64,000 bases of DNA from positions 31,795,473-31,859,472 of the forward strand of contig NC_069122.1 in assembly GCF_026914265.1 (NCBI RefSeq), given 5' to 3'. The translations under genes were made by a program, and so were the position numbers. The notes under the pieces are model-generated. The model was given only the letters and a program-made list of their open reading frames with translations, had not been told where the DNA came from and ran no database searches. Position 1 is the stretch's first letter. The number at the start of each line of letters is the position of its first letter. This document shows, in pieces, positions 1-52,299 of this stretch. Source of the DNA: Mya arenaria. Its lineage: Eukaryota > Mollusca > Bivalvia > Myida > Myidae.

Positions 1-66
1 GATACGAGCTCATCATCTTCAAATCATCAAGGACGTACGGTACAGATATTCGAAGTTCTTGACAAG
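1..66 (+). CDS. Partial exon, Ser-rich cytoplasmic tail of plus-strand EGF-TM paralogue
   Basis: Frame 1 is open from the window edge to a GACAAG|gtaccg donor, which leaves phase 0, the phase needed by the next exon at 1,271. The encoded stretch contains TSSSSSN and ends IFEVLDK. The minus-strand exon at 44,180-44,273, which would follow the membrane exon there, also contains TSSSSSN, so this is probably the equivalent juxtamembrane tail exon. Its start lies outside the window. The homology is by eye and the exon is short. Confidence 0.5.
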
Positions 67-505: not shown

Positions 506-1270
506 AAACAGACCACGCTTTATGCATGATTATCATAAACATAACTATCCGAACTGCTACAAATTGACTGTTTAAAACTGTTCCAAATTGAGCATTTCAC
601 ATTTCTGTTTTTGTCATCGAAAACACGGATTGCAAAATGTGTACAACGTATCCTCCAACGAACTAATTTAAGGAATGTAATAACTTTGTCCCTTCGTTTT
701 ATAAGTCTCTTTTTGAATTTGTTCAACAGACGTGATATTAACACAACGGAAACTACCCATTGTTTTTTTTTGTGGCATATAGTTGTTTTGATTTGCAAAG
801 CATACAGAACTCGTGGCAAAATAATATCAATGAGTTTACTTTAAAGCTTGTGGAAAGGGTTAAATGAAAAACAAATCAGGCAAAGCCATAAATACAGATA
901 TTTAAAGTCTTTGAAACCTACGTTTTGTTTTGTAAAAAACACTCAACACAAATGATTTACGTTTTCAAAACGCAAGTTTTAGAGCCGCTTTCCGCTCAGA
1001 GTGGAATGAAATAAGAAAAAAAGGAAGTGATTCCATGTTTTTCTGTTTCCGATCTGTTTTAGCTGTTTAGCAATGTCATTAATTGTTTTCTTTCTTTAAA
1101 ACTATCGAATTCACGGTGTTTTTTTAGTAACTAAATTGCTGCAAGGCTGTAATGGTTAGTTGGAGTTGTATGTGTGTTGATTTTTCGAAAGTGAATTGAC
1201 AGTTCAACATATTTTAAAATTTAGGTGAGACATGTATTGTCAATATAAACACCCGTTTTCTATGTTCCAG

Positions 1271-1331
1271 AACAGAGGCATCTCTTCAAGCGAAGAAACA
1301 TCAAGTTCTGAAACGACTTCAGGTGGCTCAG
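1271..1331 (+). CDS. Tail exon A1 (Ser/Glu/Thr-rich), phase 0 to 1
   Basis: The acceptor is ttccag|AACAGAGG and the donor GGCTCAG|gtaggaa. The 61 nt encode 20 residues rich in Ser and Glu, with NRGISSSEETSSSE followed by a Ser/Gly tail. It starts in phase 0 and leaves one base for exon B1. Exon A2 at 7,607 differs by a Thr-to-Ser change near the 3' end. No known domain is recognised; the cytoplasmic placement is inferred from the paralogous minus-strand gene. Confidence 0.75.
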
Positions 1332-2600
1332 GTAGGAAACCTTTACGGCCATTTTGATGACGTCATCACATATGCGAGGCTCGAACATTCAAAATTTTGG
1401 AAATTAAGGCGGCAATTTTTACTTAGATCTTGTTTTTATTTTTAGAACGTCACTTTTAGAATGCTTTTTTGACACCTTTTTAGTCAATATATTAGTCCGG
1501 CAAGTTTACAGAGCCGACTAGTATACAAGATTTAACCTTTGACTGCGAACATAGGGAGTCATGTCCTCTGCGCTAAGTGGTGACTATTTTTTAAGCTTTT
1601 TATATGAAAGTGTCCAGATTATAACATAAATTGAACCAAGTCGCTGTCTTTACGGGTTGGAAGTATTATTGCCGGAAACGTTATAGTTACAGATTACTAA
1701 ATTACAACGTAAAACATGAAAGGAGGAAAAAGAAAATGTTTGTAAATGCCTATTGGAAGTATTTCACATCATATCAATCACAAGCTGTACTACTGCACAA
1801 TAATATATTTTTTATATTAACATTATACAATGTTCGTGTATATGTATAAGATTTAAAATAATGCATTAAGAAAATAACAGTATCGTTTTATTGTAAATGT
1901 TATGTAGATTGTTAATGTTATCAGTAAAAAAGATATAAAAACATATTTGAGTACACGAGGTAGTTTTAATATATATAAAACTATCAAATGAATGATCAGA
2001 ATAGAGTTGTCCTACTCATTACAACTTTAATAGAGCTAGTATGTATTTGATAAAGCACACAGAGGCATTTGAAGAATATGTAACAGAACACAAAAAAGCG
2101 TTATTGCATTTTTACTAAAACTGAATTTATTAAAGCCATTTAAATATGAAGTAAAATCATGGCTTAACATTTACTAAATTACTACAATTACTAATGTTAA
2201 TAAAACTGACGGATCCCTTACCCTTAAATAAATACCGTATTGATTATACATGGTTAATGAACTATTTGTAGCCAAGCAACTCTGACTCTACGTCTGGAAA
2301 ACATCATGGTGAGAATACAGAATACAGTTTCATTTGTTTGTTATTGAAACAACATAACTCAAAACCAGTTAGAACATTGTTCCTAAATGTTACATTGGAA
2401 AAAGACTTATTGTTTTGATCAAATATAAAATACAGCTTTCCATAATTATGCAAAAAGCTACAGAAACATGCTCAGTAGCAAAAAGTTTAAACATAAACCC
2501 GGTTTAGTGGCAATGGGCAAACGCCAAAGACATAGAACACAAATTCACAAACAAGAAACATAGAACAATACACAACTCTACAAACAGCACAGTGCATAAA

Positions 2601-2603
<3 letters not shown>

Positions 2604-2657
<54 letters not shown>
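2604..2657. repeat. (AT)n microsatellite
   Basis: About 54 bp of uninterrupted TA/AT dinucleotide lie inside the copy-1-specific part of the first cassette intron. Confidence 0.95.
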
Positions 2658-2660
<3 letters not shown>

Positions 2661-4296
2661 GGTATGTTTATCAAGAATTGTTAGGTACCGCCTTGAAACG
2701 GTCAGTAAAATGTAAATTTACTGGGGGTTTAAACCAGTTTATGTGCACAAACCTTACTCTTATCCCAACAATTCTTAATAAAGATAAAACGCAAAAGATA
2801 AATCTTATCAAAGTATGCATTAACTTGAGGAAACTTATCAATAAAACAAATAATAATAAAAAACGAAAAGGTAAACCCCAAGTACTTCAATGATTAGAGA
2901 TCCCAACTCTATCTGCAGACGGAGGGAAACAATTCAGAGCACCTAATGCAAATACTTTTCAAAGATACGATGCAGTCATCGTTAGAAACCAAAAACATCA
3001 CACACAGTCTGCCTTATAAAATAAAAGGTTTAAAACTGTGTGATCATAGAGTTTCATAATGAAAAGCATCATTGTACTAAAACTGGGAATAAATAAAGAA
3101 AAACATTTTTCCAATTTTCAAGCATCATCAAGTTCATAGTAGCGAGAAATGTGGATATATATATTTGATTTTTTTATATATATTCTTTGTTTCAGCGATA
3201 TTTTATTAATTTACCAGAAGCATTAATAGTTTTACTGACCAAAATAAGTTTTTTCTCTTTACCGTATTGCTTACTTTCCAGTCAAATGAAGAACATGAAA
3301 CAAGACTATGTAAAGGTGTGCATGTGCTCCGTGTATTTTTGTTTTGATTACCACTGATTAACGGAGATAAGATCCCGCCGAAAACATGTGCATTTTGCTC
3401 TATGATAAGCCCACACATTGTTTGAGCAATAAATGACGAGCTTTTCTGTGTATTTTATGGTTCGTTGCTTCCCATTAAAAGCCATCACTCCAGCAAGGAA
3501 ATGACGTAGTCCCTTTCATAAATAAACCGTATCGGACCTGACGATACTTCAAGCCCGCACTAACGAAGTGATCAAATTTGTTTAATAACATATGATAATG
3601 CAAGAGAGAAATACGCCGCTTATAACATTTTCTTTTCGGCATAACGAACATTAAAACACAATTAAATAATAAACATAATTATTAAACAGAGATGCTTACC
3701 ATGTACAATAGCTATAGAAAAAAAGACATTTATATTGCGAACTAGAATTCAAGCATTAGTATATATTAGACCAGTGCGCATGCTTCAGAGTTTGTTGATT
3801 TTAAAGAGCTCCGTGAGAAACTACATTGGGTGCCCAAGTTACAGATTTCTCCAAGACTACAAAAAAGAAGTCGACTTAAAATTAATCCACAAAATGTCGT
3901 GAACAATATATGTACATTGCGCTATATATTTTTTTCTAATAATAATTTGTAAAAAAAGATGTACCCGTATATAAAAAAATCCTGGCAACCTTCGATTTAC
4001 GTTCTCAATCTGAAATGATGATATCTTTGAAAAGGCCGTCGAATATATAAAATTTTGAATATTTTCGCCGTGAATATGCAATACATCATCCAAAGTGGCC
4101 ACCGCGCATGCGTATTCTTGATTCTTTAGATATCCATGTATTATTGATTCACCAACCTTGTAAAATTAGAACAAAGGTTTCAACACACAATTCATGTTCC
4201 TTTTGTTTGTATGTCCTCAATATCACAAAATACTAAAGATTCGACTTAATTGAGTTCACCATTTTAAATATTCTATAAGATAGAAAAGGAGCGATA

Positions 4297-4410
4297 AACA
4301 ATTCTGGTTGTTGCAAACTCATTTTGTTTGTTAAATTTAAATCAACATTCGTTTAAAAATGTTGATTTAAATTTAACAAACAAAATGAGTTTGCAACAAC
4401 CAGAATTGTT
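4297..4410. repeat. Perfect 52-bp inverted repeat with 10-bp loop
   Basis: The left arm at 4,297-4,348 is the exact reverse complement of the right arm at 4,359-4,410. The loop is tcgtttaaaa. The paralogous position in copy 2 (about 10,765-10,850) has the left arm but no right arm. It would form a long cruciform or hairpin in an intron. Confidence 0.95.
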
Positions 4411-4876
4411 GATATAACGCCTATTTTAGGTCATTATAATGTGTAAGTGTATTATAATTGAGTACAACTTTGCTGTAGAATGTTTAATTTTAAGAATTTG
4501 ACCATTTATTTTATCAAAATGGTATTATTAAAAGAGGTTGCATTTCTATTTTATTTTTGTATAAAAGTATGCTTTGCTGTTATCAACACACAACAAACGT
4601 TAATATCACCAGACATCTCAAATTTAAATAATTGAATATCTGAAACCTAAAGTAAAAAATCCTTGAATGACGTCAAGGGTAAAGACATGCTATATCAGTC
4701 TCCTCTAGCACAATGATATTATGACAAAATGTAGTCTAGACGCATTTAAGTACTGGGGTTTGATTATGAGCTCATATGGTTTCTGTCTTCTCAGATACAT
4801 AAACGAAACAATTATGTATCAAGAAAAAAGCAATTTAAAAGGAAATGTTGATATAAGCTCTGTTTTCATATTACAG

Positions 4877-4971
4877 ACGAGTCTGTAGCGGGAGGGAAGA
4901 AAAAAAAGTCACCGAAAACGACAGTTGTTTCCATCATCGAGCAAATATGTCCATGTTTAACTATAAGTGAG
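4877..4971 (+). CDS. Tail exon B1 (Lys-rich, II-E-x-x-C-P-C motif), phase 1 to 0
   Basis: The acceptor is attacag|ACGAGTC and the donor AGTGAG|gtaaat. With the carried G it reads DESVAGGKKKK, then a Lys/Thr segment, then VSIIEQICPCL and a TISE end. The 95 nt are consistent with phase 1 in and 0 out. The hydrophobic VSIIE block followed by CPC is shared with B2 and is partly conserved in the minus-strand exon at 43.5 kb. The Cys pair could be lipidated or bind metal; this is speculation. Confidence 0.75.
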
Positions 4972-5272
4972 GTAAATATCAATCCATATCGGTCATCTTG
5001 TGTTGTGTTGTTGTATACACGGTTTCTTAATTGCTCTTTTGCATGAACTTTACTTTTTATTTCCATAAAGGAGAAGAAAGTAATTAAATATGCCCCAAAA
5101 TGCATTATTTCTGACTAGAATTTGTCTACCTTTTCTTAGGAGGGGGTAGCGCCCCATCTCACGTCTTTTTCTAGATACGACTCTTCTTATTGCTTAAAAG
5201 GTGAAGGGAAATTTCGAATAAAAATATCGCTAAAACGTAAATGTCGATAAAAAACTAAATTGTATGCTTCAG

Positions 5273-5309
5273 GGCGAAGAAACAGATTCTGGCACAAATA
5301 AGGATGAAG
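5273..5309 (+). CDS. Tail micro-exon C1 (acidic), phase 0 to 1
   Basis: This 37-nt micro-exon has acceptor tgcttcag|GGCGAAG and donor GATGAAG|gtaaca. It encodes GEETDSGTNKDE plus a split Gly. The same exon occurs at 11,770-11,806 with an identical protein, and a diverged version at 13,901-13,943. Confidence 0.75.
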
Positions 5310-6083
5310 GTAACAACATACCTTTTCCTTGAATTCATGTTCTTAATTATCTGGACTCAATATCATAAAATAGTTAAGATTCGACTCAACTGAACTAAAG
5401 GTCACACTATACCATTCTCCAGTGGCTCATGTTGTTAAAAATGATTGGCCGCAATATCACATAAGTACAAATAAATTCGAATTAACTTAGAACATTGTTT
5501 AAAATTGTATTTATAATGGAACTATTTTTCTCTATTTTCAAATTCTGGTTTATTCCTCAATTAAATACATTCTACAACAAATGTTGTTTTGTGATTTATA
5601 GGTCATTAATTATTTATCCTTAAGCAATTAATTAAGTACATTGTTTGCTATTTATTTATTTTACAATAGTGAGAATGATTGTTTACTTACATGATATATG
5701 AAATAAAGCGATCTTAAATATATATTATATATAAAACAAATGTCAATGTTATGCTGTTATTTACACATAACACACTTTTAAGACACCAGCCATCACATAT
5801 GCACATACATTTACAAAGGATACTATATGTAACAAAACCCCAGTATGGCGTCATAATTATTCTTTTAAGTAAAAGCGTATTAAGATAAAACATGCTTTTC
5901 ATTCAAAGAAGAGTTTTCTTCCCTATCTCATAAATATTCATGAAAACGAGGTTGTCTACGGTACTTCCTTAGCGTTTGTTTCCTTGTTAGATTTATCGAA
6001 ATAAAGAAAGAGAAAATTCTGAATTAAGTACAAAGCGATTTATAAACAGAATTGATGCTCTTATCTCTATTGCCCTATTACAG

Positions 6084-6142
6084 GAGAAAGTAACGAAGAA
6101 GAAACAGATTGTTCGGGGCCGGAAGATGCCTCCACCAAAAAG
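6084..6142 (+). CDS. Tail exon D1 (acidic), phase 1 to 0
   Basis: The acceptor is attacag|GAGAAAG and the donor AAAAAG|gtatca. With the carried G the 59 nt read GESNEEETDCSG, PEDAS and TKK. It exits in phase 0 and can join exon A2 at 7,607 in frame. Confidence 0.75.
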
Positions 6143-7606
6143 GTATCATAGACACGTCGATGAGGATTAGTTTTAAAGGGATTCCTTTATGATTTTGTAA
6201 ATGCTTTTTTATGACGCATTGATTTGTGGCAAATCATTAGTAGTGTTTAAAATAACATTCCGACGGCGGTTACCCTTCAACTAATGTTGATATATGCTCA
6301 TATAATGTCGTTGAAGTCTACGATTTTGAATAGCGTTAGTAACGAGATTCAACAAAAAGCTTAAAAGTCATGTTATCCTGATGTTTGTATTCTAGTGTGT
6401 GAGTTTTTTTGTCTGTTTTCTATTATTTCATACGTTACATTAATTTTATTCCTACAATACGGTATCAAAGAGTAAAGTAGTTATAATATAATGTTTTACA
6501 GACGCATTTTCGAAAACACAATGTTGGTGCCAAAACATTAGCGAGTCCCTTTAAATTCTCAAACATACTCGTCTGTCTATAATCAAAGCGATTTAACTTG
6601 TCCGTAAAAATATTTTAGATATACATACATATAAATAGGCATAATGCATTTCGGCCATTTGAAACTCCATCAAATCAGTCAAAAATAGTAAATGTGTTCA
6701 CAAATTAAGCAGAGCTTTAGCATTATTACAATACCAACTAAAAATTACATGCAGTTTGATCAGAACATGGATTTTGCAGGTTCCTTTCGAACGCCCACTT
6801 TTTTTACTAATGGAAAGGACCCTTTTTTATAGCTAATCACACCGACCAACTACTCATTTTAGTATAGAACATAATCACAATCAGATGCATTTTGTTAAAA
6901 CAAATCCGTTTTGACTATTTGCTAGCTTTGTTTACTATTGTTCTGTCAAAAGCATGGCTAACTTATTTGAAACATGATACATGATCATATAATACAACCG
7001 TATGCTTAAGGGACATAACAACCAAAACGATGAATTTTAAACTAAATCACTGCCTTAAAAGTGTTCGATTATTATAATTATTTGCTGAAAACACCTAAAG
7101 TCAAAGACAGTTCTGTAGCGTTCGTTGATATTCTTGCATCAGCATAGTCAACCTACTCAATAAATCAAATTTCAAAGAAAATACAGAATGCAATTGACAA
7201 ATATTGCAGCACGTGTTTGTTTATATTCTCACTAGCATCTGGCGCCTTCCCGTTCCCATGTCAAAGTACTTTTGTATATACAAGTACTTTTGTACAAGCC
7301 CTTATTTTCCAACGTAAAATAACCTGACCATTTCGGTCAATATGAAATAAGAAAAAAAGGAAGTGATTCCATGTTTTTCTGTTTCCGATCTGTTTTAGCT
7401 GTTCAGCAATGTCATAAATTGATGTCTTTCTTTAAAACTATCGAATTCACTGTTTTTTTTAAGTAAATAAATTGCTGCAAGGCTGTAATGGTTAGTTGGA
7501 GTTGTATGTGTGTTGATTTTTCGAAAGTGAATTGACAGTTCAACATATTTTAAAATTTTGCTGAGACGTGTATTGTCAGTATGAACACCAGTTTTCTATG
7601 TTTCAG
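6143..7606 (+). other. Intron D1-A2 across the copy 1/copy 2 junction
   Basis: No exon was recognised. About 410 bp here (6,355-6,763) are absent from copy 2 but present at 15,190-15,540 in the third copy, so copy 2 lost them. The junction motif lies at 7,323-7,342. Confidence 0.65.
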
Positions 7607-7667
7607 AACAGAGGCATCTCTTCAAGCGAAGAAACATCAAGTTCTGAATCGACTTCAGGTGGCTCAG
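7607..7667 (+). CDS. Tail exon A2, phase 0 to 1
   Basis: The acceptor is gtttcag|AACAGAGG and the donor GGCTCAG|gtagga. The 61 nt encode NRGISSSEETSSSE and then a Ser/Thr/Gly tail. It is almost identical to A1. The open frame runs on into the intron, but the splice sites match A1 exactly, so the read-through is not taken as coding. Confidence 0.75.
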
Positions 7668-10600
7668 GTAGGAAACCTTTACGAACCAAAAATCCGCATG
7701 CGCGGCGGCCATTTTTGATGACGTCATCACCTATGCGAGGCTCGAACATTCAAAATTTTGGAAATTAAGGCGGCATTTTTTAAATTAGATCATGCTTTTT
7801 TTTTAGAACGTCACTTTTAGAATGCTTTTTTGACCCCTTTTTTAGTCAATATATCTTAGTCCGGCAAGTTTACAGAGCCGACTAGTATACAAGATTTAGC
7901 CTTTGACTGTGGACATAGGGAGTCATGTCCTCTGCGCTAAGTGGTGACTATTTTTAAGCTTTTTATATGAAAGTGTCCAGATTATAACATAAATTGATCC
8001 AAGTCGCTATCTTTACGGGTTGGAAGTATTATTGCCGGAAACGTTATAGATAAAGTTTACTAAATTACAACGTAAAACATGAAAGGAGGAAACATGCAGC
8101 AAAACGGAATGCATATTCTTAATCTAGTACACAGAAAATCACTACCACGTGATTATCTTAAAAGCTCAGTTTGATTTTATTGAAATTAATTATTATTTTT
8201 TAGTTAATTGTTAATGTAGCGCTTATTTGGTCGAGTGAGTGATGCCATTGGACACTCCTATGCAAGTCTGTTTAATAAAGCATTACTTGAACCTTGGGGG
8301 TTTATTAGACATTATCTGAGTCTTTAGTGTAGTTATATCTACACTCTTTTTTTCTGACGATTATAAAACCCTTAAACATTCTAGGCCTTTAAAGTATGAA
8401 CATGATTTATCTCAAATACGAATCAAGTGATATTGCCAGTAAATACACTAACATATTACTGATGTGGAGAGAACAAGAAAATAAATTTCATCCCTGAACT
8501 AGAACCGGAAACAAATCTTACGTTGCTTTGGTAAAGTGTGCTTATGTTTAACAATATGCATTGATTGTTTCAGTTTAATTATAATAAATATCACAATATA
8601 AGAGATAAACCAGATGTAGTATCTCCTTTTGTAAAAAAACACAACATAACATTTTCCATTAGATAAAATTTTGTATCCCTGGCCTGTGGCCACAGTATCT
8701 TTCCTACATGCTTCACTAATCTGGATGAATGTTTGCAATACAGTCTCAAGTTATGTTGAACTATAAGCAAAAAGACCACCAGTTTCTTCTCTTTCATTCA
8801 ACTTACAACTTCATGCTTTTTTAACACAATCACTCTCTTTCTGTATTAGCAACTGGATCCTGGTCAATAGGTGTAGTCTTGAGCATATTTGAGTATCATT
8901 TATGACAAAAAGGGAGTAAAACATGCTTCTGTTCAATTTTAAGCTAAATGCAACAACATCCAAAGATTGATAACAGTCTATTCAATATTTTAATGTTGAG
9001 ACAAGTATTAGAACATGTGATATATTAAAAAACACAACAGACATAGCCATTTCGGTCAAATAAGAAGCAGCCAACCTTTGAACATTCTCTTGGTACGATT
9101 TCGTAGTGGTAACTGGTACGAAGTCTCCGTATTCGGGCAAAGCCATACCTCGCTATAAGATGTTCAATTGGAACGCGATCGATAACACATGAAATTGCAA
9201 GTGAAAAGCGATCTGATATCCATTATACAATTAAAGATAAAATTCATGCATCTCAGTGTTAGCCCCATTTTTTCAGACAATGCACGTGAACACACTTAAA
9301 AGTAAAACTATTTTACTCTTTGATTCTGAAATCGAAGGAAAAAAAACAACTTAAGAAACCAAAGCTATTCTGTGGTGAGCGATCCCACGTCGGTACCGTC
9401 AATGAATAAATAGAAAACTGACGCTGACGCTGAATATTAAAGCATATATCGACACTTCAGGATTACAGCCATCAGTATCTAAGTTTTGACACTTTTAATG
9501 ACTTTCCAAACTTCATTTCGTCATACAAAAAAAGAAGGTTAAAACAAAAACATGAGTGAGTCCCTTTAAAATCACCTTTCAGAAAAAAGGTTATCCGACT
9601 TGTTTCTTAAACTTATTTGCTTCGCTTCCAGGCAAATAAAATGGTGTCCAATTTTCAAGCCTTCATCAAGTTCATAGTAGCGTGAAATGTGGATATATAT
9701 AAAAAACATTTCTACATATACTTTGTTTCAGCGATATTTTATTAATTTGCCAGAATCAATAATAGTTTTACTGACCAAAAAAACGTGCATTTTTGTTTTG
9801 ATTACCACTGATTAACGGAGATAAGATCCCGCCGAAAACATGTGCATTTTGGTCTATGATAAGTGCACACATTGTTTGAGCAATAAATGACGAGCTTTTC
9901 TGTGTATTTTATGGTTCGTTGCTTCCCATTAAAAGCCATCACTCCAGCAAAAAAATGACGTAGTCCCTTTCATAAATAAACCGTATCGGACTTGAAGAAG
10001 AGCGCAATACTTCAAGCCCGCAATAACGAAGTAATCAAATTTGTTTAATAACATATGATAATGCAAAGAGAGAAATACGCCGCTTATAACATTTTCTTTT
10101 CGGCATAACGAATATTAAAACACAATTAAATAATAAACATAATTATAAAACAGAGATTCTTTACATGTACAGTAGCTATAGAAAAAATGACATTTATATT
10201 GCGAACTAGAATTCAAGCATTAGTTTATATTAGACCAGTGCGCATGCTTCAGAGTTTGTTGATTTTAAAGAGCTCCGTGAGGAACAACAAGGGGTGCCCA
10301 AGTTACAGATTTCTCCAAGACTACAAAAAAGAAGTCGATTTAAAATTAATCCACAAAATGTCGTGAACAATATATGTACATTGCGCTATATGTTTTTTTC
10401 TTATAATAATTTGTAAAAAAAGATGAACCCGTATATAAAAAAAAATCCTGGCAACCTTCGATTTACGTTCTCAATCTGAAATGATGATATCTTTGAAAAG
10501 GCCGTCGAATTTATAAAATTTTGAATACTTTCGCCGTGAATATGCAATACATCATCCAAAGTGGCCACCGCGCATGCGTATTCTTGATTCTTTAGATATC

Positions 10601-11289
10601 CATGTATTATTGATTCATTAACCTTGTAAAATTAGAACAAAGGTTTCAACACACAATTCATGTTCCTTTTATTTGTATGTCCTCAATTTCACAAAATACT
10701 AAAGATTCGACTCAATTGAGTTCACCGTTTTAAATATTCTATGAGATAGAAAAGGAGCGATAACCGATTCTGGTTGTTGCAAACTCATTTTGTTTGTTAA
10801 ATTTAAATCATCTTTTTTAAACGAATGTTGATTGTTGATATAAAGCCTATTTTAGGTCATTATTTAAGTGTATCATAATTGAGTACAACTTTGCTGTAGC
10901 ATGTTTAATTTTAAGAATTTGACCATTTATTTTATCAAAATGGTATAATTAAAAGGGTTTGCACTTCTACTTTATTTTTGTATAAAAGTATGCTCTGCTG
11001 TAATCAACACACAACCAACATTAATATCACCAGACATCTCAAATTTAAATAATTGAATATCGGAAACCTAAAGTAAAAAATGCTTGAATGACGTCAAGGG
11101 TAAAGACATGCTTTATCAATCTCCCCTAGCACATTGATATTATGACAAAATGTAGTCTAGACTAGGGGTTTTGATTATGAGCTCACATGGTTTCTGTTTT
11201 TTTTGGTCAGATACATAAACGAAACAATTCTGTATATAAAAAGCAATTTAAAAGGAAATGTTGATATAAGCTCTGTTTCCATATTACAG
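7668..11289 (+). other. Intron A2-B2
   Basis: No exon was recognised. The segment 8,093-9,645 is specific to this copy. It carries ccatttcggtcaa at about 9,049, a partial copy of the motif found at the duplication junctions. The segment 9,650-11,289 is collinear with copy 1. Confidence 0.55.
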
Positions 11290-11384
11290 ACGAGTCTGTA
11301 GCAGGAAGGGAAAAAGAAAAGGCACCGAACAAGACATTTGTTTCCATCATCGAGGAAATATGTCCATGTTTACCTATATGTGAG
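11290..11384 (+). CDS. Tail exon B2 (II-E-x-x-C-P-C motif), phase 1 to 0
   Basis: The acceptor is attacag|ACGAGTC and the donor TGTGAG|gtaaac. It reads DESVAGREKEKAPN, KTFVSIIEEICPCL and PICE. Compared with B1 the Lys-rich stretch has changed, but SIIE-x-ICPCL is preserved and a third Cys (PIC) is gained, which suggests the motif is under constraint. Confidence 0.75.
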
Positions 11385-11769
11385 GTAAACCTCAATGCAA
11401 ATTGGTCATGTTCGGTTGTGGTGTGTTGTTGTATGTAAAAACACGGTTTCTTAATGGCTCTTCCACTTTTTGAGAATATGTACGCAGTTTACTTTTTATT
11501 TCCATAAAGGAGAACAAAATATTAAAAAAACTCCCAAAATGCACCATTTTGCACTAGATTTATTTTAAATTTTCTTAGGAGGGAACCCCCCAACCCTCTG
11601 CCCACATTTTAAAAGAAATAAAATTCAGTACGAGGGGGGAGTAGCGCCCCTTCTAACGTCATTTTCTAGACCCGCCCCTTATTATAGCTTGAAAAGTGAA
11701 GGGAAAATTCGAATAAATATGTCGCTGAAATGTAAATGTCGATAAAAACAACTATATTGTATGTTTCAG

Positions 11770-11806
11770 GGCGAAGAAACAGATTCTGGTACAAACAAGG
11801 ATGAAG
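11770..11806 (+). CDS. Tail micro-exon C2, phase 0 to 1
   Basis: This 37-nt exon with acceptor gtttcag|GGCGAAG and donor GATGAAG|gtaaca encodes the same peptide as C1 (GEETDSGTNKDE plus a split Gly), with only silent differences visible. Confidence 0.75.
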
Positions 11807-12609
11807 GTAACAACATACCTTTTCCTTGAATTCATGTTCTTAATTATCTGGCCTCAATATCACAAAATAGTTAAGATTCGACTCAACTGAACTAAAGGTC
11901 ACACTATACCGTTCCCCTGTGGCTCATGTTGTAAAAAAAATGACTGGCCGCAATATCACCAAAGTACAAATAAATTCGATTTAACTTAGAACAGTGTTTT
12001 AAATTGTATTTTTAATGGAAATAATTTTTCTCTGTTTTCAAATTCTGGTTTATTCCTCAATTACAAACATTCTACAACAAATGTTGTTTTGTGATTTATA
12101 GGTCATTAATTATTTATCCTTAAGCAATTACCTAAGTACATGTTTGCTATTTATTTATTTTTACAATAGTGGGAATGATTGTTTATTAACAAAATATATG
12201 AAATAAAGCGATCTTAAATATATAAATATATATATATATAAACAAATATCAATGGTATGCTGTTATTTACAAATAACACACTTTCAAGACACCAGGCATC
12301 CCACATGCACAAAAATTTACAAAGGATACTATATGTAGCAAAACCCCAGTATGGCGTCATAATTATTCTTTTAAGTTAAAGCGTATTAAGATAAAATATG
12401 CCTTTTCATTCAAAGACGAGTTTTCTTCCCTATCTCATAATTATTCATGAAAACGAGGTGGTCTACGGTACTAAATACGGGGGTTGCGTACATGAGCTTC
12501 CTTAGCGTTTGTTTCCTTGTTCGATTTATCGAAGTAAAGAAAGACAAAATTCTGAATTAAGTACAAAGCGATATATAAACAGAAATGATGATCTTTTGCC
12601 CTATTACAG

Positions 12610-12668
12610 GAGAAAGTAACAAAGGAGGAACAGATTGTTCGGGGCCGGATGATTCCTCCACCAAAAAG
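12610..12668 (+). CDS. Tail exon D2, phase 1 to 0
   Basis: The acceptor is attacag|GAGAAAG and the donor AAAAAG|gtatca. It reads GESNKGGTDCSG, PDDSS and TKK. The EEE run of D1 is replaced by KGG. It leaves phase 0, so it can splice directly to C3 at 13,901. Confidence 0.7.
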
Positions 12669-13467
12669 GTATCATAGACACGTTGATGGGATTTCTTAAT
12701 GATTTTGTAAATGCTTTTTATGACGTAGTGATTTGTGGCAAAACATTAGGGGTGTTTAAAATAACATACCGACGGCGGTTACCCTTCAACTAATGTTGAT
12801 ATATGCTCATATAATGTCGCTTTAGTCTACAATTTTGAATGGCGTTAGTAACGAGATTCAACTAAAGGCTTAAAACAGAACATTGATTTTGCAGGTTCCT
12901 TTCGAACGCCCACTTTTTTACTAATGGAAAGGAGGAAATGACCATTTTCTATAACTAATCATACCGACCAACTACTCATTATAGTATAGAACATAATCAC
13001 GAGCAGATGCATTTTGTTAAAACGAATCCGTTTTGGCAATTTGCTAGCTTTGTACAATATTGTTCTGTCAAAAGAATGGCTAACTTATTTGAAACATGAT
13101 ACATGATAATATTAGTAAACCGTATGGTAAAGGTACATAACAACCAAAACGATGGATTTCAAACTATATAACTGCCTTAAAAGTGTTCGATTATTATCAT
13201 TATTTGCTGAAAACACCTAAAGTCAAAAACAGCTCTGTAGCGTTCGTTGATAGGCTTGCATCAGCATAGTCAACCTACTCAATAAATCAAGTTTGAAAGA
13301 AAATACAGAATCCAATTGACAAATATTGAAGCACATGTTTGTCTATATTCTCACTAGCACCTGGTGCCCTCCCCTTCCCACGTCAAAGTACTTTTTTCAT
13401 ATACATGTACTTTTGTACAAGCCCTTATTTTCCAACGTTAAATAACCTGACCATTTCGGTCAATATC

Positions 13468-13523
13468 TGTGACGAAAAGTGTTTCCAGCATTAAGCAAAT
13501 ATATCCATGTTAATTATACGAGA
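13468..13523 (+). pseudogene. Relic of exon B in copy 3
   Basis: The sequence matches the 3' half of exon B (compare gtttccatcatcgaggaaat with gtttccagcattaagcaaat), and an aggtaaat donor follows. The 5' half and acceptor are missing and the matching frame has a TAA. A and B together take the phase from 0 to 1 and back to 0, so losing both leaves the D2-C3 join in frame. Confidence 0.7.
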
Positions 13524-13900
13524 GGTAAATATTAATGGAAATTGGTCATGTTCTGTTGTGTTGTTGTATACAGAAACACGTCTTTTCAACCTTTTTAGGA
13601 TATCCATACAGTTTACTTTTTATTTTAATAAAGGAAGAACAAAGTAATGAAATACTCCCAAAATGCACCCTTTCGGACTAGAATATATTCAAATATTCTT
13701 AGGAGGGAAACCTCCGACACCCCTGCCAACATTTTAAAATAAAATTCGGTCCGAGAAAGGGGCACAAGTCAAAAGCTTACGTTCTTAAGTAGCGCCCCCT
13801 CTAACGTCACTTTCTTGGTCCGCCCCTTATTCTTTACTGAAAAGAAAAAAAAATCGCTGAGATGTAAATAAATAATAAACAATCATTTCTTATGTTTCAG

Positions 13901-13943
13901 GACGAGGAAACAAGTTCTGATACACCAAGCCTGCCCAATGAAG
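13901..13943 (+). CDS. Tail exon C3, phase 0 to 1
   Basis: The acceptor is gtttcag|GACGAGG and the donor AATGAAG|gtaaca. The 43 nt encode DEETSSDTPSLPNE plus a split base. It is two codons longer than C1 and C2 with the same phases. The flanking intron is homologous to that of the minus-strand exon at 44,180-44,273. Confidence 0.7.
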
Positions 13944-13968
13944 GTAACAACATACCGTACTTCTGTCA

Positions 13969-14256
13969 TTCATGTTTTTAATTGTCTGGCCTCAGTATCA
14001 CAACATACTTTAGATTCGAGTTAACTGAACAGATGGTCACACTATACCATTCTCCTGTGATTCATGTTCTTCATTGTCTGGCCTCAGTATCACAACATAC
14101 TTTAGATTCGACTCAACTGAACAAATGGTCACACTATACCATTCTCCTGTGATTCATGTTCTTCATTGTCTGGCCTCAGTATCACAACATACTTTAGATT
14201 CGACTCAACTGAACAAATGGTCACACTATACCATTCTCCTGTGATTCATGTTGGTA
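13969..14256 (+). repeat. 92-bp tandem triplication
   Basis: Units start at 13,969, 14,061 and 14,153, with a fragment at 14,245. Each holds gtctggcctcagtatcacaa and ends ccattctcctgtga. The first unit differs slightly and the others are nearly identical, so the expansion is local and fairly recent. Copies 1 and 2 have only one unit after exon C. Confidence 0.95.
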
Positions 14257-14935
14257 AATCATGTCTGGCCGCAATATCAGCATTATACAAACAGATTCAA
14301 CTTAACTGACTGCAGTATTTAAAATTGTCTTTATAATGAGAAAAAATATGTTTGTTTCAAATTCTAATTTGTTCGTCTATTATGAACAATCTCAACAAAT
14401 GCTGTTTTATGATTTTTAGTTCATGTATTATAAATCCTAAATTAATTCCACTCAATAGTTAATCACTTCAGCGATTGCTAATGTACATTGTTCGCTACAT
14501 ATTTTTTTTAGAATGTTGACAATGATTTTTCATCAACATAATATATGAGAGAATGCGCTATTATATATATGTATATATATATTTATATAACAAATATCAA
14601 TGTTATGCTGTTATTTACCCCAAACACACTTTCAAGACTCGACATCCCAAATTCACATTTTTTACATCGGATACTTTATGTAACAAAACCTCTGTATGAC
14701 GTCATGCTTAGTCATCTAAGTTAAAGCGTATTAAGATGTAACATGTTATTTTATTCAAAGAGGAGTTTTCATGATAACGAGATTGTCCAAAGTACTAAGT
14801 ACAGGGGTTGCGTCCATGACCTTCCTTAGCTTTTGTTTCCTTAAAAATAATTTCGAAAAAAGAAAGAAAATTCTAAATCAAGGAAAATGCAATAAAAACA
14901 ATAGTGATGTATTTATTTCTATTGCCCTTTCACAG

Positions 14936-14994
14936 AAGAAAGTAACACAGAACATTCAGAGGATCACGAGTCGGAAAATAACGCCAATAATGAG
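14936..14994 (+). CDS. Tail exon D3 (acidic), phase 1 to 0
   Basis: The acceptor is tttcacag|AAGAAAG and the donor AATGAG|gtataa. It reads EESNTEHSEDHE then SENNANNE. The length (59 nt) and the ESN start match D1 and D2; the rest has diverged but stays acidic. A longer frame through this point includes intron and is not taken as the gene. Confidence 0.7.
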
Positions 14995-15843
14995 GTATAA
15001 AAGAAACGTTGCTGTGCTTTCGTTTTGTGGGGATTCGTTCATGTTTTAGTAAAATACTCATTTTAGAAGGAGTAAAGTCTTGGGCCATTCAACAAATGTA
15101 GGTATATGCTCAAATAATGTCTTTGAAGTCCACGAGTTTCGAGTAACGTTAGTAACGCGATTCAACAAAAAAGGCTTAAAAGATAGGTCCTAAACTTTGT
15201 GTCCTAGAAAGCGTGAGGTTTTGTTGCCAGTTTTATATTTTTTATTGACTGTATCGGCGTTTGTTCACACACCTTAAAAGGCAGAATATGTTTTTTGTCG
15301 TTAAATTAATTTATTTCTGCATTTTCGGTATCAAAGACTAAAGTAGTTTTAATATAATTGCTTACAGACTCATTTTGCGAAAATACAATGTTGGTGCCAA
15401 AACTATAGTGAGTCCCTTTCAATTCTCAACATACTCGTCAGTCAATAATCAAAGCGATTTAAATTGTCCGTAAATATATATAACATAAACATACACATAA
15501 ATAGGCATAATTCATTTCTGGCATTTTTTATCAAGTGAACACACTGAACAGTTCCATGTTAAAGAACTTCGTACATTAAATAATCTCAATTCTAAAACCT
15601 GACCATTTCAGTCAATATCTACATTTGTTAAACTCTCCAAGATACAAATACAGTTCTAAAAATGATAGTTTATATTTATTGCTTACTAAAAAACAAATGA
15701 AATTCAAAATCAAGTTGGTTACTAGATTACTATGGAATGATGTTTTCTATGTTTTTTCTTTAAACGTAAATGAACTATTTAGCACGAAATATTTCGCTAG
15801 GACGTAGACTGTCAATAGAAAACCATTTTTTCGTGTATTTCAG

Positions 15844-15885
15844 AGCAAAAGTAACAGTTCTGAATCGAAGGAATCAGAATGCTGA
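15844..15885 (+). CDS. Terminal tail exon with stop
   Basis: After acceptor gtatttcag|AGCAAAAG the frame reads SKSNSSESKESEC and then TGA. It follows D3 in phase 0. The minus-strand homologue at 42,338-42,379 also has 13 codons plus a stop, and the sequence after the stop is similar. The final residue is Cys. A candidate AATAAA lies at 16,024, about 140 bp downstream. Confidence 0.7.
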   Translation, partial: SKSNSSESKESEC

Positions 15886-42337: not shown

Positions 42338-42379
42338 CTAAGATGAAGATGAGGAGGTCTTGGAACTTCTGTATACGCT
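42338..42379 (-). CDS. Terminal tail exon homologue of the minus-strand gene
   Basis: After acceptor gtatttcag|AGCGTATAC the frame reads SVYRSSKTSSSSS and then TAG. It matches the plus-strand terminal exon at 15,844 in length (13 codons) and in downstream sequence. Entry must be in phase 0. The 44.2-kb exon exits in phase 1 and no D-type exon was found between, so this exon may be unused, or the intermediate exon was missed. Confidence 0.45.
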   Translation of the reverse strand, partial: SVYRSSKTSSSSS

Positions 42380-43438
42380 CTGAAATACGAAATATTGTTT
42401 TAATTGACAATTTAATGAATATAAACAAGCGTTGTTTTTGTATCTTGTAGGTTCAGCAAATGTTAATATTGACCGAATGCCTTTAAAACTGCACTTTCAC
42501 ACATTTTTACAACTTTTTTATTTTTTTGTCTTGGAAAGAGCATTTTTTTTTCGAAAATATCTGCAAACCAATGATATAAGATTGCTGACAAAAATCAGGT
42601 CGTAGATTTTCATATTTGCGTTCGAAAATTAATGTTTTATGGCTACTAACGGTTAAAGAAAAATATGTAAAACATTATTTTTTTAACTTAAATCTTCCGT
42701 CTAATGTTTTGTCAGTAGACTCACATGACTGGTTTCCATGGTTTTTCGCAAAAATTGGCAGGTTCCAAGCCAAAAAATAAAATAAAATGTCAAAACGTTC
42801 AATCTGTGAGAGTGCAGCTTTAAGAAATTATATAATGTGAAATCCAGCTTATTTGGTTCAATGGTTTTTTGTGCAATCAGGTTAATCATATTATCACATA
42901 GAAAGTAAATGGGCTACGATTTAAACTTAATTATTATAAAATAACCGTCATACTTGTTAAAACGGATTTTTTAACATAAATGTATTTCAATCGCTCATCA
43001 ATATTTTCAATGTTTATTAACTTGAGTAATCTATCGGTATGAAAAGTTATGTAAAAGTATTTATTCAATCCGAAAGGACTAGCATGAACCTGCACGTTTT
43101 GATATAATTGCACATGATTATATAAGAGTCGTTAAAATTTTACAAATGTGTTGGATATTCATTTACATTTTTAATATTTTTCAACTTATTTGATGGAGCT
43201 TCAATGCATGGTTGACAAATCCATTTGTGTCGACATCGCATGGTAAGGCTCTAGAATAGAGATTAATAATTGCAATGCGACATTGTATTATACCATTGTG
43301 CTACCTGATTTAAATGTGCAAATAAAAGCTTTGAAAATCGATGACCAGTGAACAAAACGTGTCCTTGTATACAAACAACTCAACAAAACATTACCAATAA
43401 CCGTTGATATGAGGTCCTGTCCAAATATGGTCCAATGG
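42380..43438. other. Intron or 3' UTR of the minus-strand gene
   Basis: No D-type exon could be found. If the stop at 43,439 is used, this stretch is 3' UTR or downstream flank. Confidence 0.4.
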
Positions 43439-43503
43439 TCACATTCTCTCGATAATGGTGAAACTTTTCGTCTCCGACACTTTTGCATTTTCCTTCACCG
43501 ATT
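43439..43503 (-). CDS. Tail exon B homologue with early stop
   Basis: The acceptor is tttgactcag|AATCGG, entered in phase 1. It reads ESVKENAKVSETKSF then TIIERM and TGA. This aligns with exon B (DESVAGREKEKAPN, TFVSIIEEICPC), but translation stops before the CPC motif. The position of the B donor, GAG|gtaaat in the plus-strand gene, is CAG|gacctc here, so the donor is lost and the exon would read into its stop. It could be the true last coding exon of this paralogue. Confidence 0.55.
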
Positions 43504-44179
43504 CTGAGTCAAACACACCTGTGTTATGACACCAAAGCTAAGTTCATCATTAATATATGTGCTATCTTTTTCCCTGATTCAGAATGTTCTCTCTTTTTTT
43601 TGAGAGAACTGACAATTCTGTAAGCTTGTCATCACAGCCCCAGTACATTATTACGTTTGCACTACAGTTCGACCGTTCACAAATATAGTTTTTATAAAAA
43701 CTGGTGGTAGGGGAAGCAAACTCTTATTCAAATGAAAATGCATGTCTTAAACTAAGTATTTACCTTGACGCCATCAGGTGTTTGTAACTTATGATATCCG
43801 ATGAACAATTACACAAAACAACATTTGTTATAAAGTGTTGATTACTGGAATATTAAACCAGAATTTGAAACAACCAGCAGCCAATTATATAAATCGTGGA
43901 TAGGTTGTACACAGGTTATTTTAATGCTAGTTTGCATATTTAAATGAATTGATTGGTTAATATTGATTTTTGGATACATATTGACCAACCAAAAATATTT
44001 TGGCCAACTTAAACCTAACCAAAGACTACACCAGTTCTGTAGATTTTTTTACACTTCCGTTTTCCATCATACATAATACTTTAAATAATGTACTCAGTTG
44101 AGTAGAAACTTGAGTTATTTGGTGATACTGAGGCCAGTCATTAACAACATGAACCACAGGAGAACGGCCCGATAATTAC
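43504..44179 (-). other. Intron between tail exons, homologous to the copy-3 intron
   Basis: The reverse complement of 44,070-44,170 matches the 92-bp repeat unit that follows exon C3 on the plus strand (ggtcactgaggcc / gtctggcctcagtatcac region), which anchors the inverted paralogy. Confidence 0.6.
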
Positions 44180-44273
44180 CTTCGTTTTTATTTAACAAGT
44201 TTGAGGAGTTAGATGAAGATGAAGAGGTCATCTCCGAAACAAATGTTCCTTCTCTCGACGAGTTTATCCTTTT
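44180..44273 (-). CDS. First cytoplasmic-tail exon (Ser-rich), phase 0 to 1
   Basis: The acceptor is atatttcag|AAAAGG and the donor AACGAAG|gtaatt. The 94 nt read KRINSSREGTFVSE, MTSSSSSNSSN and LLNKNE. The transmembrane exon at 47,009 ends in phase 0 with YLR, so splicing gives YLR-KR, a standard basic stop-transfer junction. The exon combines the TSSSSSN of the plus-strand partial exon with the end and downstream intron of exon C. The link to the EGF gene is inferred from phase and order. Confidence 0.65.
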
Positions 44274-48677: not shown

Positions 48678-48797
48678 CATGCATGCAATCATTTCCGGCC
48701 ACACCAACATACTGATCAGCGCAAACGCATTCTTTATCTACACACGTCTTGTGAGAACCACAATCGTCTGACGAAAGACACACCGATGATGTTCCAA
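48678..48797 (-). CDS. Atypical six-Cys module, juxtamembrane, phase 1-1
   Basis: The acceptor is tttccttt ag|TTGGAAC and the donor ATGCATG|gtcagt. The 40 codons read GTSSVCLSSDDCGSH, TCVDKECVCADQYVG and NDCMH. The spacing C-x5-C-x5-C-x4-C-x-C-x9-C has short loops, differs from the neighbouring EGF modules, and resembles the EB or short EGF-like modules found next to membranes. It is the last extracellular module. Confidence 0.7.
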
Positions 48798-49496
48798 CTA
48801 AAGGAAATAACTGTCAACATTTGACATTTAAATAATTAAATGACATTTTGTAAATCAATCTTGTTGAAGTATTATATTCTGTATAATCTTAGGTTCTGTA
48901 TTTGACTTTGATAAAAAGTGGTCTATATGAATGGAATGCCGATGCCTATAATCATATTGAAAACATGTACATGTTATTCAAAGTTTGTTATCGTTTGTCT
49001 TTGCATTCTAATATACGTTAACAAGGTTATGTTACTGCTGAAGAATTGATCTAGTTTTCCAACGATTAGATAGAAAATCTGTAGCCCAAACTGAACTAAA
49101 TTAGAGCTCAAGCTTACGTACTTTTTCAAATTTACATATAACAGTATTCCTACTTAAGCAGAGGTTGTCAATAAACATTGCAAAATCAGTAGTTTGATTC
49201 TGGCCAGTCGAGATATTTTCCTAAAGCTATTGTTTTCCATTGTTGGACTTTTAGCGTGATAACAAGTCATAACTTCCATAAAAATTCCAGATGTGTACGG
49301 AGTGTATGATTTATCAAAATTGATAATTATAAAAGTAAATAAAAAAGTTTTTTGTTTATTTTATACTTCACAATGTATTTGAAGTTATTTTATTGTTGTT
49401 GTTTTTCAACAGGCCCACACGGAGATCCACTCGCTCGAAAAACGTTACTCCACTGGTCAGAACCAAAGTTAAATAAGTATGATTGCAGTTACCAAC

Positions 49497-49616
49497 CCGT
49501 AGGGGTGTCACAATGAAGACCCGTCATGCCCTCACGGCATATACAATAATAGCTGCCAATGGTATCCACGCTCATGCTTTTGTCCAAACAAGGAGTGGCT
49601 GTACACTCGTTGATGT
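49497..49616 (-). CDS. EGF-like exon lacking the third cysteine, phase 1-1
   Basis: The acceptor is tttttag|ACATCAACG. It reads DINECTATPCLDKSMSVD then TIGSYYCICREGMTG and LHC. Where siblings have TC-V-D, this exon has MSVD, a TGC-to-AGC type change, leaving five cysteines. Two donors compete. ACGG|gttggt keeps phase 1 and the downstream frame; the better-looking GGTTG|gtaact four bases later would shift the frame. The coordinates use the phase-keeping donor. Confidence 0.7.
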
Positions 49617-50127
49617 CTAAAAATGAGGCCAAATAAATAAATAAACTTATGTTCAAATTTTAATGCCAACGAAAGGATTGTCTTTTTAGGAAAATAGCAA
49701 TACAGATAACATTTTCACTCTAAAAAATCGTGCCCATATCGTCCGGATATATTAACACATCATTGGCGTAGACTGTCTGTATCCAAAAGGTGATCAATTA
49801 ACGGTCTGAAGAAATAATCCTTGGAAATTGTAAAAAACAACAACTAGACTCGGGTACGAAAAACCGTGAACTCCCAATTGTTCAATCAGACAATCATATG
49901 AGTGTTAATTAAATACTCTTTAAAACACTGCCATGTGTATTAGCCACAAGACTAGCTTCAAATAAACTATTTCTATGATGAAAGAACTTCATATACAGGA
50001 TTATTGTAGTTTGGATGCATACTACCGTAGCTACCGTTTCACTTTAATACAATAAAGTAAAGTAAATCTAATTGTCTAATTGCCAAATTGGTGACACCTC
50101 AACAACCATAACAAAACAAGCACTAAC

Positions 50128-50241
50128 TTTCCGTGCAGAACGTGCCAGTAAAACCAGACTGACAAATGCATACGTAAGAGTTGATTCCGTCCTGACAAGT
50201 CGCAAAGGCTGCACACTTTCCATATAGGCAGTCGTCAATGT
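50128..50241 (-). CDS. EGF-like exon, phase 1-1
   Basis: The acceptor is aattttcag|ACATTG and the donor ACGGAAA|gttagt. It reads DIDDCLYGKCAAFATC, QDGINSYVCIC and QSGFTGTFC. It has all six cysteines, a DIDD calcium-type start and the C-x-D-x4-Y-x-C-x-C pattern typical of beta-hydroxylated calcium-binding EGF modules. The loop between the second and third cysteines lacks the usual NGG. Confidence 0.85.
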
Positions 50242-50389
50242 CTGAAAATTGCAAATTGTTCAAGTTAATCCCTAGAAAAATAAATAAAATAAACAAACAT
50301 CAATGTAAACAACGATTACCAATAAAAGGTTTGATATCTAATACTTTTTTATCTTCAGAAATAAAAAGCAGTCAGATATTCGATAGCTT

Positions 50390-51075: not shown

Positions 51076-51138
51076 CAATAAAACTAGTTCTATATCGGAT
51101 AATGTAATTAGAGAATACATGTGGAAGCGAAGTCTTAC

Positions 51139-51261
51139 TGGTTCGACAATTGGTTCCGGTAAATCCCGCTGCGCATGTGCAAACGTACCCAGCGTCAGGG
51201 ATGTTCGTCACTTCACACGTCCCATTGTTTGTACATGGGCTTGAATCGCACACGTCAACCG
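51139..51261 (-). CDS. EGF-like exon, non-calcium type, phase 1-1
   Basis: The acceptor is cacttcag|CGGTTG and the donor CGAACCA|gtaaga. The 41 codons read VDVCDSSPCTNNGTC, EVTNIPDAGYVCTC and AAGFTGTNC. It has six cysteines but a longer third loop, no DINE start and no hydroxylation pattern, so it is probably not calcium-binding. A longer open frame around it is read-through into introns. Confidence 0.85.
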
Positions 51262-52280: not shown

Positions 52281-52299
52281 TAGAGGATAATTGTATGCT

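What the first reader, a model, noticed from the sequence alone, without database searches (positions are those of the whole stretch)
1003..15885. Cytoplasmic tail lengthened by frame-neutral duplication of a four-exon cassette
Exons A-B-C-D have phases 0-1, 1-0, 0-1 and 1-0, so any number of cassettes, or just C-D, can be stacked without breaking the frame. Two full copies and one C-D copy are present, with 10 internal exons plus a terminal exon all in register. A repeat-modular intracellular tail made of Ser/Glu-rich micro-exons behind an EGF ectodomain is not a family I recognise.
Basis: partly seen in the sequence, partly recalled or inferred. Interest (0 to 1): 0.8.

Follow-up and report, generated by a model that had tools for sequence, protein, structure and literature searches.

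The report
Receptor tail built from two-exon modules
In an animal genome, the tail end of a gene (probably the inside-the-cell part of a surface protein) seems to have grown by repeatedly copying a pair of tiny exons that can be stacked without upsetting the reading frame, while a related gene nearby on the other strand keeps just one such pair.

Summary
The exons are real as described: A1-B1-C1-D1-A2-B2-C2-D2-C3-D3-terminal, all on +, phases 0-1/1-0, one open frame. Three corrections. (1) The basic unit is probably a two-exon module P(0-1)-Q(1-0): A, C and the terminal exon are P-type, B and D Q-type; exon letters alone join A, C and T, but not B with D, whose link rests on their upstream introns. 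The 'C-D copy' is an older repeat that still holds a dead B remnant. (2) No EGF exon precedes the array in the window. The EGF exons belong to a convergent minus-strand gene (10 EGF exons, an EB-like exon, a transmembrane exon) whose tail has one P-Q pair plus a terminal-exon homologue. That paralogue makes 'cytoplasmic tail behind an EGF ectodomain' likely, by homology, for the + gene. (3) A-B shows coding constraint between the genes; the extra copies C3/D3 diverge faster than their introns yet keep frame, splice sites and a hydrophilic make-up. Best reading: module stacking lengthened a disordered tail. Transcription is untested. Multi-exon block duplication is known (nebulin, titin).

The parts
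1..66 (+). 3' part of a preceding exon (DTSSSSSNHQGRTVQIFEVLDK), ends in phase 0; start lies outside the window
   Evidence: AAG|GTACCG donor and open frame joining A1 in phase; weak 7-residue TSSSSSN match to P' (E 0.99)
1006..7341 (+). unit 1 of the recent tandem duplication (A1-B1-C1-D1)
   Evidence: five BLAST blocks 87.8-91.9% identical to unit 2, gaps counted
7342..13466 (+). unit 2 (A2-B2-C2-D2)
   Evidence: breaks at 7341/7342 and 13466
13447..15620 (+). unit 3, older (dead B remnant, C3, D3)
   Evidence: main BLAST blocks 70.5-80.3% identical to units 1 and 2; 77% in gapless intron columns
1271..1331 (+). exon A1 (P-type, 0-1)
4877..4971 (+). exon B1 (Q-type, 1-0), carries SIIEQICPC
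5273..5309 (+). exon C1 (P-type, 0-1)
6084..6142 (+). exon D1 (Q-type, 1-0; in the alignment its donor lies where B reads on for 30 nt)
   Evidence: exon letters alone do not match B
7607..7667 (+). exon A2
11290..11384 (+). exon B2, carries SIIEEICPC
11770..11806 (+). exon C2
12610..12668 (+). exon D2
13472..13525 (+). dead B3 remnant: 5' part and acceptor gone, a 1-nt deletion followed by an in-frame stop
   Evidence: found by a B1/B2 profile at E 2.7e-8 but by the B+D profile only at 0.13
13901..13943 (+). exon C3 (6 nt longer than C1)
14936..14994 (+). exon D3
15844..15885 (+). terminal exon T with TGA: a P/C-type copy that gained a stop; the place of C's donor reads GTTACA instead of GTAACA
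   Evidence: flanks align to C's introns; P profile without T or T' finds it at E 1.6e-8; exon-only match to A1, A2 and C2
47009..47088 (-). transmembrane exon of the minus-strand paralogue (VAVLIGVILVCIIVVIAGTTFTIIYLR), phase 1-0
   Evidence: maximum 19-residue hydropathy 3.15; donor weak
44180..44273 (-). P' exon of the paralogue (KRINSSREGTFVSEMTSSSSSNSSNLLNKNE), 0-1
   Evidence: found by an A1/A2 profile at E 1.4e-7
43438..43518 (-). Q' (B') exon of the paralogue, ...ESVKENAKVSETKSFTIIERM then TGA; homologous donor lost
   Evidence: found by a D1-D3 profile at E 2.4e-9 and a B1/B2 profile at E 5.1e-9
42338..42379 (-). T' exon homologue (SVYRSSKTSSSSS then TAG)
   Evidence: found by the P profile of the six + members at E 4.1e-5, but by the profile without T only at 0.21
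48678..59488 (-). ectodomain exons of the paralogue: 10 EGF exons (phase 1-1, nine of 114 nt and one of 123 nt) and an EB-like exon
   Evidence: all 10 pass Pfam's EGF cut-off; EB-like exon below cut-off; borders were sought with phase 1 required, joined

Best explanation
The + strand region is the 3' end of a gene for a single-pass surface protein, a paralogue of the minus-strand EGF-transmembrane gene. Its cytoplasmic tail grew by repeated tandem duplication of a two-exon module, P (phase 0-1) followed by Q (phase 1-0), with flanking introns. Because each P-Q pair is 0-0, pairs add in frame in any number. The order inferred is: one P-Q pair plus a P-derived terminal exon (the state still seen in the minus-strand gene); doubling of the pair into A-B and C-D; older repeats, of which unit 3 has no P exon before its dead B; and a recent duplication of the whole A-B-C-D block with breaks at about 1006 and 13466 (at most a 2-nt overlap). 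Copies then specialised. B keeps the hydrophobic SIIE.IC motif; D lacks it, perhaps through an earlier donor; the last P copy gained a stop and became the terminal exon. Likely effect (inferred): a longer, acidic, disordered tail carrying two copies of the B motif (possible membrane anchoring or docking through Cys-Pro-Cys), so more reach and valency. Shown: exon anatomy, phases, homology, paralogue. Inferred: transcription, membrane topology of the + gene, B-D exon descent, function.
For: One open 714-nt frame through 12 exons. Held-out profiles of exon plus upstream intron: A1/A2 find P' (1.4e-7); C1-C3 find A1 (6.7e-6) and T (1.6e-5); D1-D3 find B' (2.4e-9) and B1 (3.4e-5). Pairwise, 21 of 28 P-P and 12 of 15 Q-Q pairs beat all 300 background windows, against 0 of 48 P-Q pairs. 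The A-B intron matches the C-D intron. In the minus gene EGF, EB-like, transmembrane, P' and Q' exons follow in phase on one strand. Coding constraint between genes: A1-P' synonymous 8.3 of 12 sites, nonsynonymous 10.7 of 39; pooled with B1-B' p = 0.0011, A2/B2 version p = 0.013. C3 and D3 kept splice sites, frame and openness at 77% intron identity, P = 0.0115 under a neutral simulation, and have 1 hydrophobic residue of 33 where drift gives a mean of 7.7 of 31 in runs that stay open, P = 0.0006 given open. B3 decayed. Exon GC 43%, intron 32%.
Against: No transcript. The 5' part of the + gene, with any EGF or transmembrane exon, is outside the window. Exon letters alone do not join B to D: exon-only, 5 of 15 Q-Q pairs beat all 300 windows, none of them B-D; 11 of 28 P-P do; 3 of 48 P-Q pairs also do (C1-D1, C2-D1, P'-D1). 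B2-D3 is at background with intron too in one test (66 of 100 shuffles). C1-C3 do not find P' or T' (E about 1). Units 1 and 2 show no purifying selection overall (dN 0.089, dS 0.077) and exon and intron mismatch rates are alike (20 of 252 against 276 of 4019, p = 0.52). B2-B' alone shows no significant constraint (p = 0.16) and no third-position excess (9, 16, 15). D3's donor is weak (43.7% of GT score as well) and C1's acceptor ordinary (17.8%). The minus gene's transmembrane donor is weak (5 of 9), its Q' has an in-frame stop and one further EGF exon is decayed, so it may be partly degenerate.
Confidence: 0.63

Rival explanations
1. Relic: the + array is an orphaned 3' fragment of an EGF-transmembrane paralogue, no longer expressed, and the modules are drifting.
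For: dN about equal to dS between units 1 and 2; C3/D3 diverge faster than introns; dead B3 next door; no EGF-like pattern on + before the array in the window.
Against: All 12 exons remain open and in phase with the splice dinucleotides intact; hydrophilic make-up kept in C3/D3 against drift (P 0.0006 given open); A1 and B1 constrained against P' and B'.
Confidence: 0.18
2. Alternative use (not exclusive of the best explanation): the copies are not all stacked in one mRNA but are chosen or skipped in pairs, giving tails of different length, as for tandem alternative cassettes.
For: Every P-Q pair is frame-neutral; some weak splice sites (D3 donor, C1 acceptor); an 82-nt stretch only in unit 1 holds a 0-1 micro-ORF at 3282-3315 (read by eye) that could replace A1.
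Against: No direct evidence either way; by phase the pairs can be stacked and need not be mutually exclusive.
Confidence: 0.4
3. Secreted acidic phosphoprotein: the Ser/Glu-rich array belongs to a secreted, calcium-binding protein (casein or shell-matrix-like), not a cytoplasmic tail.
For: 30% Ser+Thr, 24% Asp+Glu, net charge -35; SSSEE-type stretches.
Against: Homology to a tail that follows a transmembrane exon in the minus gene; S-x-[DE] and [ST]xx[DE] sites are not above composition (13 against 11.8 and 18 against 16.9 in shuffles).
Confidence: 0.08
4. Assembly artefact: units 1 and 2 are two haplotypes placed in tandem.
For: A recent 6-kb direct repeat in a repeat-rich region.
Against: About 7% mismatches in aligned introns (276 of 4019), many indels, non-homologous blocks 1730-3109 and 8093-9646, and a break inside an intron with only unit 2 followed by unit 3. 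An artefact would not make unit 3 or the homology of A with C.
Confidence: 0.05

Closest known systems
Nebulin triplicate region (and titin segmental duplication region)
   Same: A multi-exon block repeated in tandem inside one gene (nebulin: 8 exons three times, 10 kb each; PMC9109913, passages; titin: search listing of PMC9142044).
   Different: There the copies are highly similar and belong to a muscle protein; here units 1 and 2 differ by about 7% and unit 3 by about 23% in introns, the exons are 37-95 nt, and the product is a Ser/Glu-rich tail, probably of a surface protein.
Chelicerate sDscam tandem 5' cassettes
   Same: Two- or four-exon cassettes in tandem in a surface-protein gene (PMC4835542, passages).
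   Different: Those are at the 5' end, encode Ig domains and are chosen by alternative promoters; here the cassettes are at the 3' end, encode no known domain and can be stacked in phase.
Tandem duplicated exon substitution events (mutually exclusive exons)
   Same: Homologous exons side by side in one gene (PMC9741552, search listing only).
   Different: Here pairs are 0-0 and can be joined in series; mutual exclusion was not tested.
EGF-repeat single-pass surface proteins encoded by phase 1-1 EGF exons
   Same: The minus-strand paralogue has phase 1-1 EGF exons, an EB-like exon and a transmembrane exon.
   Different: The + strand tail has no Pfam or PDB sequence relative (0 families at E 0.1, 0 chains at E 10).

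Membership tests
EGF-repeat single-pass transmembrane protein (+ strand gene) | EGF exons upstream on the same strand | tested here: inconclusive
   None on + before the array within the window; the gene runs off the window start
EGF-repeat single-pass transmembrane protein (+ strand gene) | Transmembrane segment before the tail | not testable with these tools
   Upstream DNA not held; no genome held
EGF-repeat single-pass transmembrane protein (minus-strand gene) | EGF exons, transmembrane exon and tail in phase on one strand | tested here: met
   11 ectodomain exons, transmembrane, P' and Q' in phase (phase 1 was required when EGF borders were sought); 10 of 10 EGF exons pass Pfam's EGF cut-off; EB-like exon below cut-off (16.2-19.4 against 24.3 bits)
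Intragenic frame-neutral multi-exon tandem duplication | Block with equal start and end phase, repeated in one orientation inside a gene | tested here: met
Intragenic frame-neutral multi-exon tandem duplication | All copies included in the mRNA | not testable with these tools
   No transcripts
sDscam-type alternative cassettes | Cassettes at the 5' end, encoding Ig ectodomain | tested here: not met
   Array ends in the stop codon; no Pfam match in the tail
sDscam-type alternative cassettes | A promoter per cassette | not tested
   No tool for animal promoters
Secreted Ser-phosphorylated acidic protein (casein-like) | S-x-E sites above composition | tested here: not met
   13 S-x-[DE] sites; 769 of 2000 shuffles reach it
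Secreted Ser-phosphorylated acidic protein (casein-like) | Signal peptide and no transmembrane segment | not testable with these tools
   5' end outside the window

The most novel reading that the evidence does not exclude
A family of EGF surface proteins varies its intracellular tail by module copy number: a stackable two-exon unit is multiplied in one gene and single in its neighbour, and the extra copies are selected for composition (hydrophilic, Ser/Glu-rich, almost no hydrophobics) rather than sequence, diverging faster than their own introns. The tail would act as a tunable disordered spacer carrying repeated SIIE.ICPC docking or anchoring motifs, its length varying between genes, individuals or splice forms.
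Probability: 0.3. Interest if true: 0.62.

Novelty: new variant of a known kind. Interest (0 to 1): 0.46.

Why it matters
It gives, in one 64-kb stretch, a single-module and a multi-module version of the same tail, so the steps from one P-Q pair to a long array (pair doubling, block duplication, loss of a partner exon, stop gain making a new terminal exon) can be proposed from sequence and tested. It offers a testable case of selection on composition and length of a disordered tail rather than on its sequence.

Tried and rejected
Own-genome search: no genome is held for this window. Pfam and PDB searches of the spliced tail: nothing. tRNA and Rfam scans: nothing. Phosphosite enrichment (CK2-like, Fam20C-like motifs, recalled): not above composition. 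The idea that a relict fifth C copy sits at 4.16-4.29 kb was first taken from BLAST; it fits better as homology of the A-B intron with the C-D intron. A homologue of exon Z0 in the minus gene was sought and not found convincingly. Exon-candidate enumeration at donor score 7 does not recover B or D. Bacterial, viral, plasmid and phage collections were not searched, because the locus looks plainly animal (introns, EGF exons); organism not identified (a mollusc is my impression, from no call). Nine paper searches listed no report of such a tail; only open-licence PMC papers are covered, and I read passages of two, the rest as listings.

Choices before counts: one search used exon ends one base off for some exons and its translation was wrong; one search corrected them. 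One search left out window 13961-14144 (extra 92-nt tandem copies) from unit 3. The 276 of 4019 intron mismatches come from the seven intron segments, its totals rebuilt from rounded identities; the non-homologous blocks were left out. The B-B' block is 16 codons chosen around ESV and SIIE, which favours constraint; A-P' was given for 17 and for all 20 gapless codons (A1 p = 0.037 and 0.035; A2 p = 0.042 and 0.069). One search's pooled p of 0.0035 used hand-rounded counts; (0.0011) replaces it. In one search, 16 columns of B1-B' were out of register and not counted. After the exon-only control failed to join B and D, I lowered the main confidence from 0.66 to 0.63 and raised the relic rival from 0.17 to 0.18.
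Full report
What is there. With a partial exon that runs in from the window start (1-66) they form one open frame of 714 nt, 237 residues, ending in TGA. Phases are A 0-1, B 1-0, C 0-1, D 1-0. By a simple consensus score, nine of eleven acceptors are in the top 3% of the 820 AG of the region; C1 (17.8%) and C2 (9%) are ordinary. Ten of eleven donors (Z0 included) are in the top 3.4-17.7% of the 881 GT; D3's is weak (43.7%). Exons are 43% GC, introns 32%.

Repeat structure. Block 1006-7341 is repeated at 7342-13466 in five BLAST pieces 87.8-91.9% identical, gaps counted, with about 7% mismatches in the aligned intron segments (276 of 4019). A third, older unit follows (13,447-15,620). The DNA after the terminal exon is 76% identical to the C-D intron and the DNA before it aligns to C's upstream intron: the terminal exon is a C-type copy that gained a stop. 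The ends of units 1 and 2 share the sequence CCTGACCATTTCGGTCAATAT, and unit 3 ends in it with one difference.

The unit is probably a pair. With 80-90 nt of upstream intron included, 21 of 28 P-P pairs (A, C, T, P', T') and 12 of 15 Q-Q pairs (B, D, B') exceed all 300 real background windows, none of 48 P-Q pairs does, though two come within one window. Held-out profiles: C1-C3 find A1, A2 and T (6.7e-6 to 1.6e-5) but not P' or T' (E about 1); A1/A2 find P' (1.4e-7) and T (3.5e-4) and C2 only at 0.02; D1-D3 find B' (2.4e-9) and B1 (3.4e-5); B1/B2 find B' (5.1e-9), the dead B3 (2.7e-8) and D1 (3e-6) but not D3 (1.3). The A-B intron matches the C-D intron (score 60 against a maximum of 39 in 30 shuffles). 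Exon letters alone give a weaker picture: A1 matches C3, T and P', and A2 matches C3 and T, above all 300 windows, so A-C-T homology holds; but no B-D pair does, and three P-Q pairs (C1-D1, C2-D1, P'-D1) do, perhaps through the shared Glu/Ser-rich codons. So the P family is well supported; the Q family rests on the introns before B, D and B'. In the alignment, D's donor sits where B reads IIE|Q, 65 nt into B with 30 nt to go; D is 59 nt. A new donor in D is therefore a suggestion, not shown.

The paralogue. Introns of the array match the minus strand at 42.2-45.9 kb. Reading that strand gives, in phase: 10 EGF exons (phase 1-1, the phase being required in the border search; all 10 above Pfam's EGF cut-off), an EB-like cysteine exon (below cut-off), a transmembrane exon (VAVLIGVILVCIIVVIAGTTFTIIYLR, hydropathy 3.15; donor weak), P' (KRINSSREGTFVSEMTSSSSSNSSNLLNKNE) and Q' (ending ...ESVKENAKVSETKSFTIIERM-stop), then a homologue of the terminal exon. 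So the EGF exons of this window, but for a lone one at 27.7 kb, belong to a convergent gene with one module; they cannot be spliced to the + array. By homology, the + array is most likely the cytoplasmic tail of a related protein whose ectodomain is left of the window. That step is inference.

Is it coding? Between genes, A1 and P' differ at 8.3 of 12 synonymous and 10.7 of 39 nonsynonymous sites (17 codons; 10.3 of 15 and 14.7 of 45 over all 20 gapless codons). Pooled with a B1-B' block chosen around conserved residues p = 0.0011; the A2/B2 version gives 0.013 or 0.023; B2-B' alone 0.16. Mismatches by codon position are 4, 8, 13 for A1-P' but 9, 16, 15 for B2-B'. Inside the array the picture differs. 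Units 1 and 2: dN 0.089, dS 0.077, no contrast with introns, though B1-B2 differ more than the intron before B (12 of 95 against 75 of 1500, p = 0.004). C3/D3 against C1/D1: exon identity 64.6%, intron 77.5% (34 of 96 against 290 of 1288 mismatches, p = 0.006); allowing for base composition (unit 2 against unit 3), 23 mismatches were expected and 35 seen. Yet splice sites, frame (a 6-nt insertion only) and openness were kept (neutral simulation P = 0.0115), and one of 33 residues is hydrophobic, where drift from C1/D1 gives 7.7 of 31 on average in the runs that stay open (P = 0.0006 given open). I read this as selection on length, frame and hydrophilic make-up, not on sequence; the simulations rest on simple assumptions.

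How it most likely works. Each added P-Q pair lengthens an acidic, Ser/Glu-rich, presumably disordered tail without frame damage; the two B copies each carry SIIE[QE]ICPCL, whose IIE core is also in Q'. The likely effect is more reach and two docking or membrane-anchoring motifs; length variants by skipping 0-0 pairs are possible. None of this is tested. No motif enrichment for acidic kinases was found.

Known or new. Multi-exon block duplication inside genes is known: nebulin's eight-exon block (PMC9109913, passages) and titin (PMC9142044, listing); tandem two- or four-exon cassettes at the 5' end of sDscam (PMC4835542, passages). Nine paper searches listed no report of a stackable two-exon module in an EGF protein's tail. 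I call it a new variant of a known kind.

Noticed in passing
window 60083-63997: Satellite of 43-bp units, 91 copies at 86% match, with strong GC skew, next to the 5' side of the minus-strand EGF gene.
   Followed up: no
window 55650-55763 (-): A further EGF exon of the minus gene has an in-frame TAA just before the expected donor; if it is phase 1-1 like its neighbours it can be skipped without frame loss.
   Followed up: partly
window 27653-27766 (+): A lone EGF exon on the + strand with a weak donor between the two convergent genes.
   Followed up: partly
window 3248-3329: 82-nt stretch present in unit 1 only, with a micro-ORF (SNEEHETRLCK) at 3282-3315 between AG and GT; phase 0-1, so it could stand in for A1 (read by eye; the print was one base off).
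   Followed up: no
window 1730-3109 and 8093-9646: Non-homologous blocks at the same place in units 1 and 2 of the duplication.
   Followed up: no
window 4294-4413: Inverted repeat, 56-bp arms 98% complementary, 8-nt loop, in unit 1; unit 2 was not listed with the hairpin.
   Followed up: no
window 39925-41613 (-): Reverse-transcriptase-like ORF pieces; also transposase-like ORFs near 23.7 and 30 kb (names recalled from the residues, not searched).
   Followed up: no
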